Positions 25,361-41,312 of a stretch of 45,893 nt of DNA are shown here, piece after piece. This stretch comes from a virus. The position numbers and the translations under genes are program-made. The stretch lies in IMG/VR virus record IMGVR_UViG_3300035193_000053, positions 1 to 45,893 of that record. One strand, written 5' to 3'. The first letter of the stretch is position 1. Every line of letters starts with the position of its first letter. Under the pieces are notes generated by a model. The model saw only the letters and a list, made by a program, of their open reading frames with translations, made no database searches and was not told the origin of the DNA.

Positions 25361-25463
25361 CATGGTAGAAGGCTATTTTACAAGTGAATAAAGAATCGTT
25401 TCCTTTTTCGTATGTTGTAAAGAGAACAAGAACAAAAGAAAAAACTTTTTGAAAGGTAGAATC

Positions 25464-25994
25464 ATGGAAACTTTGAACACGAACACAAAGAACGAAAACA
25501 AGGAAACAAAGCTGACACAGGAACAGGTAGTGGAAAGGATCAAAGCCGCAAGGTCTTTTGCCCTTGTCTTTGATGAAGACATTCCCTTGACGGCGACGGA
25601 GTTTTCGATATCCGACGCGACGTGCAGGAAACTCGGCTTCGACGCTTTGAAGGCGGATGAACTTCGACCTGCTTATCACAAGGAAAAAGACGGTGTTCGT
25701 CAAAATGGTCTTTTCCTTGTAAACAACCATTGCCCTAAGCCTGAAACGCTTGAACAGGCAGAAAGGGTTTACGCTGTTCTTGCGAAAGATGCCAACGTTC
25801 TTGAGAAAGTTCAGGCGGATATTGCCAGGCTTTTTCAAAACAAGGCCAGGGTCCTTTTGTCAGCTCCAGTCGAAAGTGCCTCGCAACAGCGTCGGGCCGT
25901 TAAACTCTCGAAAGCCGAGACGTTGAAAGCAGCGTTTGCGGCGGGAGAGCTTACGGCGGAAGAACTTGTGGAAAAGATGACAAGCTTGTTGTAG
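25464..25994 (+). CDS. Monocistronic early protein of unknown function
   Basis: The start is ATG 25464 with AAAGG eight bases upstream; an in-frame TTG at 25449 lacks a ribosome site. The 176-residue protein begins with a polar, Asn/Lys/Glu-rich tail (residues 1-20). A mixed alpha/beta centre follows, with FALVFDEDIPLTATEFSISD and a long helix (KPETLEQAERVYAVLAKDAN). It ends in a Lys/Ala-rich helical tail (KLSKAETLKAAFAAGELTAE) like an assembly or protein-binding motif. It has its own promoter and a strong terminator, so it is expressed alone and perhaps very highly. I do not recognise a family. Confidence 0.7.
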   Translation: METLNTNTKNENKETKLTQEQVVERIKAARSFALVFDEDIPLTATEFSISDATCRKLGFDALKADELRPAYHKEKDGVRQNGLFLVNNHCPKPETLEQAERVYAVLAKDANVLEKVQADIARLFQNKARVLLSAPVESASQQRRAVKLSKAETLKAAFAAGELTAEELVEKMTSLL

Positions 25995-26574: not shown

Positions 26575-26802
26575 ATGTACATTGAAAAGATTACCTGTCA
26601 GGGCCTTAACAGTCTTGAAGGCTGTCACAGGAAAGAAGAGCAAAGGATAACTGAGGAAGAACTATATCAGCTTCTCAAAAAGGGATGGAAGGCAACAGTG
26701 AACCATAACATTAATGGAGTGGTTGGTTGCTATATCCATGTCTCTGAATTGGGTTGTAATGGATGGGCGAATTGTCCAGGCGGTTGTAATTCGATTTCAT
26801 GA
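26575..26802 (+). CDS. Small cysteine-rich early protein
   Basis: ATG 26575 has AAGGAG eight bases upstream. The frame extends further up but across the promoter. The 75-residue product has an N-terminal strand (MYIEKITCQGLNSLEGC), a helical middle (ITEEELYQLLKKGW) and a C-terminal cysteine cluster (VVGCYIHVSELGCNGWANC ... CNS). It begins the first early operon. The role is unknown; the cysteines suggest metal binding. Confidence 0.65.
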   Translation: MYIEKITCQGLNSLEGCHRKEEQRITEEELYQLLKKGWKATVNHNINGVVGCYIHVSELGCNGWANCPGGCNSIS

Positions 26803-26812
26803 GCTTTGAAAA

Positions 26813-26830
26813 AAAGAAAGAGAGGCTTTT
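26813..26830 (+). repeat. Repeated gene leader, copy 1
   Basis: AAAGAAAGAGAGGCTTTT occurs here and at 27824-27841, just before the ATGs at 26835 and 27847. The shorter AAAGAAAGAGAGG precedes the gene at 27479 (27461-27473). It supplies the ribosome site, and supports ATG 26835 over the upstream in-frame ATG 26799. Confidence 0.7.
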
Positions 26831-26834
26831 TACC

Positions 26835-27137
26835 ATGAACAAACAAGCCGTTTTGAAAATGACGGAATCAGAGATGTTGGAACACAGAATTGAGCTCGAC
26901 GTCCCTGAATGTTTTCTATGTGATAGATGTAAGAACTGTAAGCAGTGTTACGGATGTCTGGATTGCATTAACTGTCTCTGTTGTAACGCCTGCAATCGTT
27001 GTGTTGATTGTATAAATTGTTTTCGTTGTTCAGACTGCTTCGGTTGTAATAATCAAAGAGATAAGCAATTCATGATATTTGACGTGCAGTTGACGAAAGA
27101 GGAATATAGACAAAAGATGAAAGATTGGAGTGTGTAA
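26835..27137 (+). CDS. Cysteine-ladder (CXX)16 protein
   Basis: The start is ATG 26835 on the repeated leader. The 100-residue protein has a short helical N terminus. From residues 26 to 71 there are 16 cysteines at exact three-residue spacing (26, 29, 32 ... 71), plus an extra one at 49. Most intervening residues are polar or aromatic (D, N, R, Y, F, L). The C-terminal tail is acidic and basic mixed (FDVQLTKEEYRQKMKDW). A period of three with one cysteine each would put all thiols on one face of a solenoid, or make a multi-metal cluster. I know no function for it. It is not a ribbon: there is no second ligand class. Confidence 0.75.
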   Translation: MNKQAVLKMTESEMLEHRIELDVPECFLCDRCKNCKQCYGCLDCINCLCCNACNRCVDCINCFRCSDCFGCNNQRDKQFMIFDVQLTKEEYRQKMKDWSV

Positions 27138-39627: not shown

Positions 39628-40014
39628 ATGGCCAAGAACGAGGCGAGGCTTAAACCAATGCTTGGAAGATATCCCATCACAGACTTCTATTGCATTGATG
39701 AAAACAGAAAGCTATGGATAGGAAAGGTTGCTTATCCTACGAATATACCAGAGGGAATGGAGAACAGCCTTTTTGTATTCTCGAGATCCTATGACAGGAT
39801 CAATAACACCGTTGACCAAATGCTCGAGGAGTTTGAGATTCCTGAAAACACAACGTTCATGGACGAGAGAACGAAGAAAAGGGAACCCATGTTCTCCAAG
39901 ACAATCCTTCTTATCCCAAAGGAAAAGATCCTCTTTGCGTATTTCCCTGCGTGTGATATCATAATTCCAACAGGTGACTTTGGGAGAAACGCCAGAAGGA
40001 GGCCGATTCAATGA
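39628..40014 (+). CDS. Hypothetical protein
   Basis: ATG 39628 follows AAGGAG. The 128-residue product is a mixed alpha/beta protein (LGRYPITDFYCIDENRKLWI then SYDRINNTVDQMLEEFEI) with a strand-rich, basic C-terminal part. No motif was found. The methyltransferase start overlaps its end. Confidence 0.5.
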   Translation: MAKNEARLKPMLGRYPITDFYCIDENRKLWIGKVAYPTNIPEGMENSLFVFSRSYDRINNTVDQMLEEFEIPENTTFMDERTKKREPMFSKTILLIPKEKILFAYFPACDIIIPTGDFGRNARRRPIQ

Positions 40015-41312
40015 AGATGCTAAAGCTCACAGAGATAAAAGAAGGAAAAAGAGGAAGAAAGGATTATGGAAATCTCGATGAGCTCATCGAGAGTATACAA
40101 AAGTATGGTATCATACAACCAATAGTCGTTAGAGAGCTTGAAGGAGATTCAAAGTATTCTCATGAGCTAATAGCCGGTGGCAGACGATTACGAGCCTGCA
40201 CTCTTGCTTGCATTCCAGAGGTTCCATGTGTTCTTAGAGATGAATGTTCGGATATCGAGCTCAAAGAACTTGAGCTTGAAGAAAATATTCAAAGGAGAAA
40301 CCTTGCGTGGAGCGAAATAGTAGACATGAAGCTTGAGCTCGACAATCTAATGCAGGAAAAGTATGAGCTCAAGAGAAGAGAAGTTCTTGGAACAGGCGTA
40401 AAGGTGCAAAAACCGGGCGTTCGAGAACTTGCCACAGCTCTCGATGAATCAATCTGCTCTGTGTCAAACGACATTCGTCTTGCAAAGGCTATGAGAGAAG
40501 ATCCGGAGCTAAAGAAGAAACTTGAAAAGATGCCAAAGAGCATTGCTTTCAAGAAGCTTCAACAGATTGAAGAAAGAAAAAAGAGAGAGGAGGAATTTGA
40601 AAAGCTTGGTGGTGTTCCTGACGTTGATCTTCGACATGGAAATTGTTTGACGCTTATAAAAGATATTCCAGACAGCTCTATCAACCTCATCATAACAGAT
40701 CCTCCATATGCGGTGGAGAAGATAGATGAAGCGAAAGGATCTTACAATGACCTCTCTCAGGAAAGCGATAATAGCAATAAAGAAACAATGCAAGAACTCT
40801 ACAAAGCTCTCTTCCCAGAACTCTTCCGAGTTCTCCAACAGGGAGCTCACACGTATATCTTTTACGCTTCCGAATGGTATAGATTCCTTTTCGATTGTGC
40901 AACAAACGCAGGATTCATTGTTGATCCAGTTCCACTCATCTGGTACAAAGAATGCACAACGGCCCCTTTTCGAGGCTATGGTTACCAGCCAACCTATGAG
41001 CCAATCCTGTTCATGCAAAAACCCCCAAGAGAAAAAAGACAGCTTAGAACCGCAAAAGGAAACCTTCTCTCTTACAAGCAGATTGAACGAGGTCTCAAGA
41101 GACACCCATATCACAAACCTCCCGAGCTCCTGCGTTTATTCATCGAACAATCTTCGTGCAAAGGAGAATCCGTTCTCGATCCCTTTACCGGCTCCGGTGA
41201 AACGATCAAACAAGTTCTTGGGTCTTTTCGACATGGGATAGGATTCGAGCTTGATAAAGGTAATTATCTAAAAGCACTGGAGTACTTGTCTAATGAAGAT
41301 AAAGATTTATAA
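40011..41312 (+). CDS. ParB-domain / DNA methyltransferase fusion
   Basis: ATG 40011 (AGGAGG upstream) overlaps the previous stop. The 433-residue protein has a ParB/sulfiredoxin-like N-terminal domain (KYGIIQPIVVRELEG, then AGGRRLRACTLA at about 55-66) and a helical linker to about 200. The C-terminal amino-methyltransferase has DPPY at residues 230-233 and the SAM-binding DPFTGSGET at 390-398, the beta-class order. There is no restriction partner in the window, so it is likely an orphan enzyme that protects or marks phage DNA. The ParB part may position it on DNA. Confidence 0.88.
   Translation: MKMLKLTEIKEGKRGRKDYGNLDELIESIQKYGIIQPIVVRELEGDSKYSHELIAGGRRLRACTLACIPEVPCVLRDECSDIELKELELEENIQRRNLAWSEIVDMKLELDNLMQEKYELKRREVLGTGVKVQKPGVRELATALDESICSVSNDIRLAKAMREDPELKKKLEKMPKSIAFKKLQQIEERKKREEEFEKLGGVPDVDLRHGNCLTLIKDIPDSSINLIITDPPYAVEKIDEAKGSYNDLSQESDNSNKETMQELYKALFPELFRVLQQGAHTYIFYASEWYRFLFDCATNAGFIVDPVPLIWYKECTTAPFRGYGYQPTYEPILFMQKPPREKRQLRTAKGNLLSYKQIERGLKRHPYHKPPELLRLFIEQSSCKGESVLDPFTGSGETIKQVLGSFRHGIGFELDKGNYLKALEYLSNEDKDL

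What the first reader, a model, noticed from the sequence alone, without database searches (positions are those of the whole stretch)
26835..27137. Sixteen-step CXX cysteine ladder
Residues 26-71 of this 100-residue protein have a cysteine every third position, 16 in an unbroken run. That is far too regular for a zinc finger. It suggests a triangular solenoid with a stacked thiol face or a multi-metal cluster. It lies in the first early operon behind an ECF-like promoter, so it acts early.
Basis: partly seen in the sequence, partly recalled or inferred. Interest (0 to 1): 0.72.

Follow-up and report, generated by a model that had tools for sequence, protein, structure and literature searches.

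The report
Cysteine-ladder solenoid protein of phages
A small phage protein with a cysteine at every third residue belongs to an uncharacterised group of phage proteins in which a cysteine ladder sits where other phages carry well-known beta-helix repeats, so it is probably a rigid rod with a cysteine core whose job is still unknown.

Summary
In detail: 16 cysteines at exact three-residue spacing in an intact 100-aa gene, far beyond chance. It is not a freak. Of 14 aligned relatives of the window protein, 13 share its C-cap motif and 11 its N-cap motif. Two lines suggest a beta-solenoid. The ladder profile's best match among solved structures is beetle antifreeze protein 1EZG, a beta-helix whose inward residues are every third one. 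In sister families the C-terminal domain after the ladder also ends hexapeptide and pentapeptide-repeat proteins of other phages. Ladder positions are under purifying selection in Campylobacter phage orthologues (0 of 28 change residue, 10 of 28 vary silently). Against this, AlphaFold2 did not fold the ladder with confidence, and units per turn are undetermined. I read it as a rigid solenoid with a thiol core, an accessory, probably early protein that binds a host partner through its outer residues; that function is inferred. A metal-thiolate core is not excluded. Sigma-70-like promoter sites are at chance level; ECF promoters were not tested.

The parts
26835..27137 (+). CXX-ladder gene, 100 aa (alternative in-frame start at 26799 gives 112 aa)
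   Evidence: translation without a break, ORF list
26820..26825 (+). ribosome-binding-site-like GAGAGG, 9 bases before the ATG
   Evidence: read in the sequence
26835..26909 (+). N-terminal cap with the helix motif [KR]xx[IV][LV], found in 11 of 14 aligned relatives
   Evidence: alignment A3, recount; AlphaFold2 helices 3-8 and 11-20, pLDDT block means 89 and 73
26910..27047 (+). CXX ladder: 16 Cys (residues 26-71)
   Evidence: PHROG 15341 match over residues 25-73, E 1.7e-8
27069..27119 (+). C-terminal cap F-M-I-F-D-V-Q-L-T-K-E-E-Y-R-Q-K-M: short strands plus helix; motif in 13 of 14 aligned relatives
   Evidence: alignment A3, recount; AlphaFold2 helix 88-99, pLDDT block means 81 and 74

Best explanation
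The protein is a small capped beta-solenoid. A helical N-cap starts the coil; the CXX run winds into a rod in which every third residue, the Cys, points into the core and the two X residues lie on the surface; a short C-cap closes it. The number of CXX units per turn is not settled; four, as in beetle antifreeze protein, is the nearest solved case. The phage makes it as an accessory, probably early protein, and its varied outer faces bind a host molecule, as pentapeptide-repeat solenoids act on gyrase. Shown here: the ladder, a family with shared caps, selection on the ladder positions (in sister orthologues), and shared C-terminal domains with known solenoids (in sister families). Inferred: the fold of the window protein itself. 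Guessed: the binding function. I put about 0.7 on the fold and about 0.3 on the function; the figure given is for the fold with an intracellular binding or scaffold role.
For: Profile A3 (window plus 14 relatives) has 1EZG as best hit among 177,635 distinct PDB sequences, E 0.0032, next 0.082. 0 of 1000 full shuffles and 3 of 1000 shuffles with Cys fixed reach its score; read every third residue it gives C-A-C-S repeats. The inward residues of this repeat are C2, S5, C8 and A11, as described for the homologue DhbAFP6 modelled on 1EZG (PMC8038014, passages). Sister families: profile A4 of the domain after CXX ladders finds two proteins of genome G097 at E 1.4e-14 and 1.5e-14, both over Pfam's cut-off for YdcK beta-solenoid repeats. 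Of 66 phage records matched by one such domain at E <= 10 I read 10 (E 2e-6 to 7e-2): by Pfam, 4 are over cut-off for YdcK or hexapeptide repeats, 4 for pentapeptide repeats, phiKSUM is below cut-off for YdcK, Pd_22F has no hit. Foldseek of the sister L145 model in BFVD: 9 hits at E <= 0.001, 5 of them named as solenoid types. Ladder positions that are not Cys: 20 of 2442 in 91 non-redundant capped proteins if single breaks are allowed, mainly S (12) and L (5); L132 alternates C and S. Orthologues in 8 Campylobacter phage records (5 distinct sequences): ladder 0 of 28 columns residue-changing and 10 of 28 silent only, X positions 7 and 5 of 54, Fisher p 0.005.
Against: AlphaFold2 gives the ladder pLDDT block means of 39-55 in the window protein and 28-48 in the sister L145, although AF2 is reported to over-predict confident beta-solenoids on repeat sequences (PMC11795689, passages). 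Foldseek of the window model in PDB: 0 hits; it was not run in BFVD. The window-type caps were confirmed only on CXX ladders (15 of 109 candidate stretches, 5 of 172; the rest were not seen), so the domain-swap evidence comes from sister families, linked by the ladder itself. Most of the 1EZG score comes from Cys spacing (Cys-fixed shuffles average 12.6 bits against 19.7). No turn length shows: over 88 ladders lag 1 has z 3.9, lag 4 z 2.4, the rest below 2, and multiples of four units are if anything rare (14 of 88). A core of nearly all Cys is stricter than packing alone should need. Two of the 10 proteins read lack a Pfam repeat hit over cut-off. No function was tested.
Confidence: 0.45

Rival explanations
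1. Metal-thiolate protein: the ladder binds a row of Zn, Cu(I) or Fe ions, either as a flexible metallothionein-like chain or inside a solenoid, buffering metal or redox stress during infection.
For: Cys is nearly absolute at ladder positions (2422 of 2442 with single breaks allowed), stricter than in 1EZG, where half are S or A; AlphaFold2, which does not model metals (general knowledge), fails on the ladder.
Against: Ser and Leu are tolerated and no His replaces Cys in the capped set; unbroken ladder length varies from 10 to 54 without steps; the sister C-domain also ends solenoids without a Cys ladder; the window protein has no metal-related Pfam or NCBIfam hit.
Confidence: 0.27
2. Precursor of a modified peptide, as in the heterocycloanthracin type with repeated Cys-Xaa-Xaa, or a radical-SAM-modified peptide.
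For: Same Cys-Xaa-Xaa repetition in a small protein (PMC2674419, part 1 of 2 of the text). Two of 9 ladder proteins (L092, L108) have matches far below cut-off to the His-Xaa-Ser repeat protein HxsA4 (E 0.002 and 0.0081; 19 and 17 bits, cut-off 55). CPt10 has a radical SAM gene three genes downstream of its ladder gene, and radical SAM is over cut-off in 6 of 32 ladder-bearing records.
Against: No YcaO in the window (0 of 1) or in 32 ladder-bearing records (0 of 32; 5 of 14 control genomes positive). No radical SAM gene in the window and none over cut-off in 26 of 32 records, many of them fragments; CP220 and CPt10 carry 11 each, so the pairing is not specific. No ladder protein matched the heterocycloanthracin model in the NCBIfam scan. 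A conserved C-cap follows the ladder. Host-encoded enzymes cannot be excluded.
Confidence: 0.04
3. Disordered Cys-rich chain, or a by-product of repeat slippage without a fold.
For: Low AlphaFold2 confidence; equal XX pairs are identical in DNA in 90-96% of cases, so ladders grow by unit duplication; one relative shows an apparent frame change in its ladder (L288) and CP20 carries a stop.
Against: Conserved caps on both sides and purifying selection on ladder positions in orthologues; the window ladder is diverged, with a unit entropy of 3.77 bits and its only repeated pair spelled with different codons.
Confidence: 0.14
4. Ice-binding protein like the beetle antifreeze proteins.
For: Best solved match is 1EZG.
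Against: The beetle ice face uses aligned Thr residues at positions 1 and 3 of each turn (PMC8038014, passages); the window ladder has no Thr at X positions.
Confidence: 0.01

Closest known systems
PHROG 15341 (phage proteins of unknown function; Campylobacter phages CP220, CPt10 and relatives)
   Same: CXX ladder; window matches at E 1.7e-8 over residues 25-73; CP220 and CPt10 proteins at 2.8e-53 and 1.8e-70
   Different: their N-cap WxDxNNNxW...EEA...S.SLxNC is absent from the window protein; no shared C-cap
Beetle hyperactive antifreeze protein TmAFP (1EZG; the Pfam name PF02420 is taken from the CPt10 annotation)
   Same: inward residue at every third position; profile match E 0.0032
   Different: C-A-C-S ladder with disulfides and a Thr ice face (PMC8038014, passages); common ancestry not tested and not claimed
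Phage hexapeptide (YdcK beta-solenoid, PF18836) and pentapeptide-repeat (PF00805) proteins
   Same: N-cap, solenoid, C-domain architecture; same C-terminal domain as sister CXX families
   Different: other repeat units without a Cys ladder; the window protein lacks this C-domain
Heterocycloanthracin bacteriocin precursors (TIGR03601; PMC2674419, part 1 of 2)
   Same: repeated Cys-Xaa-Xaa in a small protein
   Different: no YcaO found, no match to the model, ladder is internal and capped

Membership tests
PHROG 15341 | match over most of the profile | tested here: not met
   window matches profile positions 35-89 of 276 only, i.e. the ladder
Window family (alignment A3) | CXX ladder with C-cap [VT][QE][FL]T[KE]xEY | tested here: met
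   window and 13 of 14 aligned relatives; L138 departs
Window family (alignment A3) | N-cap motif [KR]xx[IV][LV] | tested here: met
   window and 11 of 14 relatives (L132 loosely); L129 and L133 lack it, L138 is cut at its 5' end
Beta-solenoid (TmAFP-like) | inward residue at every third position, in a confirmed beta-helix fold | tested here: inconclusive
   spacing met; substitutions mainly S and L; fold not confirmed, AF2 low confidence
Phage solenoid proteins with the IGSR...GCFxGxxxEF C-domain | that C-terminal domain | tested here: not met
   absent from the window protein by reading; present in sister CXX families
Heterocycloanthracin / thiazole-modified precursors | YcaO cyclodehydratase in the genome and match to the precursor model | tested here: not met
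   YcaO 0 of 1 and 0 of 32 records; no match in NCBIfam; host genes not testable
Metallothionein-like metal protein | bound metal | not testable with these tools
   needs ICP-MS; no family hit for the window protein
Zinc finger | match to a zinc-finger model | tested here: not met
   the only Pfam match is ENTH, E 0.0053, below cut-off

The most novel reading that the evidence does not exclude
CXX ladders are a third class of phage solenoid, with a tripeptide repeat and an almost all-Cys core that holds a continuous row of metal ions or reactive thiols: a protein rod of adjustable length with a thiolate or metal wire inside, to which phages attach the same end domains that they put on hexapeptide and pentapeptide rods.
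Probability: 0.2. Interest if true: 0.88.

Novelty: new variant of a known kind. Interest (0 to 1): 0.6.

Why it matters
If true, phages use a tripeptide repeat, the shortest of the three, as an interchangeable alternative to hexapeptide and pentapeptide beta-solenoids, with a core made almost only of Cys. It would give a natural, length-variable scaffold for protein design, a test case on which AlphaFold2 is not confident, and a concrete question (why nearly only Cys?) answerable with one purified 100-residue protein.

Tried and rejected
Nothing found: P0001 as a single query in IMG/VR gave no confirmed relative; phmmer of the single protein in PDB gave only scytovirin at E 0.077; Foldseek and VIA on the window model found no chain; Foldseek of the sister model in PDB gave 242 weak matches, none at E <= 0.001. 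One sister C-domain gave no phage match at E <= 1e-5; another needed a limit of 10. [quoted passage not shown] No match of the CP220 protein in plasmids at E <= 1e-4. Papers: no listed title or abstract of searches (20 of 77 listed; 15 of 385 listed; 10 of 92 listed) is about CXX ladders in phages; one search found PMC2674419. In the held main text of PMC2853527 and PMC3322345 the word cysteine does not occur.

Rejected: a 15-residue turn. A first set of 55 ladders showed a lag-5 peak (z 4.6), which fell to z 1.5 in a stricter set of 88. Rejected: G292/L283; its E 2.6e-4 match lies in a 251-aa ORF that looks like a metallo-beta-lactamase-fold protein (by eye). Dropped rows: of 117 ladder ORFs read from bacterial genomes, 99 of low unit diversity were set aside; of the other 18, 3 (L213, L235, L266) clearly carry the caps and many of the rest look like other frames of repeats. 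Of the loci, 46 ORFs with diverse units were kept; some (e.g. L028, L117) also look like other frames. Counts of non-Cys at ladder positions depend on the rule: 25 of 1198 in a loose set that included such ORFs, with 3 R and 1 H; 13 of 1859 in 72 capped proteins; in 91 capped proteins 20 of 2442, 32 of 2504 and 53 of 2532 if runs of one, two or three non-Cys are allowed, the last two including R, N, T and others.

Full report
WHAT IS THERE. Window 26835-27137 on the plus strand encodes an intact 100-residue protein whose residues 26 to 71 carry Cys at every third position, 16 in all, plus one extra Cys. The pattern is absent from 100 shuffles of the window, and Cys is only 1.2% of residues in 12 long ORFs (89 of 7472). 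It is not a DNA repeat: units differ, both Cys codons are used (13 TGT, 3 TGC), and the two Ile-Asn units have different codons. The record is a 45,893-base virus record with terminase, major head protein, Dda-like helicase, a ParB/methyltransferase-like gene and a DNA polymerase (10 ORFs scanned). The gene lies near the start of the plus-strand block, after an ORF at 25449-25994 and a small Cys-containing ORF that ends at 26802, and before a DUF7736 gene. Sigma-70-like sites in the region are no more than chance (3 against 3.1 expected); ECF promoters were not tested.

IT IS ONE OF MANY. Reading 121 loci (these and the window's own), I kept 46 ORFs with diverse units. Many share an architecture: N-cap, ladder, C-cap. 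A profile search with the window type confirmed 15 loci among 109 candidate stretches. Of 14 relatives aligned with the window protein, 13 have the C-cap motif [VT][QE][FL]T[KE]xEY and 11 the N-cap motif [KR]xx[IV][LV]. In 13 caps given to a second alignment (window included; L136 and L138 not given) T, E and Y are invariant. Other families pair the ladder with an N-cap WxDxNNNxW...EEA...S.SLxNC and with several C-terminal domains. Campylobacter phages carry them: 17 records, some of them duplicates, match the CP220 protein, 13 of the 17 at 2-3 places. The F379 record notes two of them as 'cysteine rich', and an old annotation of CPt10 lists insect-antifreeze hits. No function is recorded: the PHROG matches are of unknown function, and Pfam and NCBIfam gave only matches below cut-off, among them ENTH for the window protein and HxsA4 for two relatives.

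CELLS. Of 117 ladder ORFs read from them, 99 were of low diversity; of the other 18, 3 in Erysipelotrichales clearly have the caps. Two of those three genomes hold two copies. Whether these are prophages was not tested.

WHAT THE LADDER IS. (1) Profile A3 searched against 177,635 distinct PDB sequences has 1EZG, the beetle antifreeze protein, as best hit (E 0.0032; next 0.082). None of 1000 full shuffles of the 1EZG stretch and 3 of 1000 shuffles that keep its Cys in place reach its score (19.7 bits; means -9.1 and 12.6), so most of the signal is the Cys spacing and part is the residues between. [quoted passage not shown] (2) In sister families the domain after the ladder (A4, 11 rows) is not confined to ladders. 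In 296 genomes of the class of G001, 3 have a match: G001 itself (CXX), G097 with two proteins at E 1.4e-14 and 1.5e-14, and G292, which I take as chance. Both G097 proteins are over Pfam's cut-off for YdcK beta-solenoid repeats. In phage records, tblastn with one such domain matched 66 records at E <= 10 (40 listed). I chose and read 10 (E 2e-6 to 7e-2; one matches over only 45% of the query). By Pfam, BF766P1 and phiRM10 are over cut-off for YdcK repeats, phiAGATE and MA9V-2 for hexapeptide repeats, LWP01, EBPR1, LMTA-57 and B025 for pentapeptide repeats; phiKSUM matches YdcK below cut-off, and Pd_22F has no hit though it reads like a degenerate hexapeptide protein. Foldseek of the sister AlphaFold2 model in BFVD gives 9 hits at E <= 0.001, of which 5 are named as hexapeptide, pentapeptide, YdcK, polymer-forming or beta-solenoid proteins; the other 4 have other or no names. 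So phages put the same end domain on three kinds of repeat, two of which are well-established beta-solenoids (general knowledge). The simplest reading is that the third, CXX, is a solenoid too. The window protein itself lacks this domain; its link to the sisters is the ladder.

SELECTION. In orthologues of CPt10_1641 from 8 records (5 distinct sequences), 0 of 28 ladder positions (26 Cys, 2 Ser) change residue and 10 of 28 vary silently; X positions 7 and 5 of 54; caps 15 and 13 of 59. Fisher p 0.005 against X positions, 0.0013 against all the rest. Across 91 non-redundant capped proteins, 20 of 2442 ladder positions are not Cys if single breaks are allowed (12 S, 5 L, 1 each M, G, Y), 32 of 2504 and 53 of 2532 if runs of two or three are allowed.

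AGAINST. AlphaFold2 gives confident caps and no confident ladder, in the window protein (mean pLDDT 60) and in the sister L145 (63). AF2 is reported to produce confident beta-solenoids even for random repeats (PMC11795689, passages), so its failure here is a real negative, though metal or unusual Cys packing might explain it. Window-type caps were confirmed only on ladders. Turn length is not seen: over 88 non-redundant ladders (10-54 units, median 24) lag 1 has z 3.9, lag 4 z 2.4, the rest below 2; multiples of four are if anything rare (14 of 88); and equal units are identical in DNA in 90-96% of cases, so ladders grow by duplication and autocorrelation says little about structure.

FUNCTION. 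Not shown. The gene looks accessory: in 11 loci that encode a relative of its downstream neighbour, 10 hold no run of five spaced Cys in the DNA held and L301 shows only a poly-C frame (some flanks are short). The ladder's outer residues in the window are 4 acidic and 5 basic, so a DNA-mimic charge is not seen here. Pentapeptide-repeat proteins, which protect gyrase from quinolones (PMC12864828, start of abstract in a listing), are the model for a binding role. A metal or redox role remains open because Cys is nearly absolute. A modified-peptide role, suggested by the bacteriocins of PMC2674419 (part 1 of 2 of the text), is unlikely: no YcaO in the window or in 32 ladder-bearing records; radical SAM genes are absent from the window and over cut-off in 6 of the 32 records, with 11 matches each in CP220 and CPt10, one of them three genes downstream of a ladder gene.

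VERDICT. Observation confirmed; interpretation partly supported. A new variant of a known kind (phage beta-solenoid protein) with an unusual, almost all-Cys core; no paper on it appeared in the listings of my searches, which cover open-licence PMC papers only.

Noticed in passing
L122:5852-6196 (Flavobacterium phage FL-1): The annotated gene APZ82901.1 reads APVAPI... in a frame other than that of a 36-unit CXX ladder with a C-terminal domain beyond its annotated end; the annotation is probably of the wrong frame.
   Followed up: partly
L288:1195-1575: A relative of the window family whose ladder seems to change frame: a VIIVII run, which looks like the shifted reading of CXX codons, passes into CYNC units. 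Slippage, phase variation or assembly error.
   Followed up: no
L311:501-710 (Campylobacter phage CP20): A stop codon interrupts the ladder behind the portal gene; at this place the longest unbroken ladder is 12 in CP20, 27 in CP220, 40 in WX1, 43 in F379 and CC_R7, 45 in IBB_35.
   Followed up: partly
L011, L039, L088, L154: Several different ladder paralogues in one phage contig, 4 each in L011 and L039, 2 each in L088 and L154.
   Followed up: no
window 40011-41312: One ORF matches ParB-like proteins in its N-terminal half and DNA methyltransferases in its C-terminal half.
   Followed up: no
window 31110-31589: Pyrimidine dimer DNA glycosylase family (PF03013, E 1.7e-18) in the plus-strand block.
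   Followed up: no
L137:3422-4132: A ladder protein with a long Lys-Thr repeat just before its N-cap.
   Followed up: no
L212:1601-1852: An 11-unit ladder in a Nanohalarchaeota contig without the known caps; possibly from an archaeal virus.
   Followed up: no
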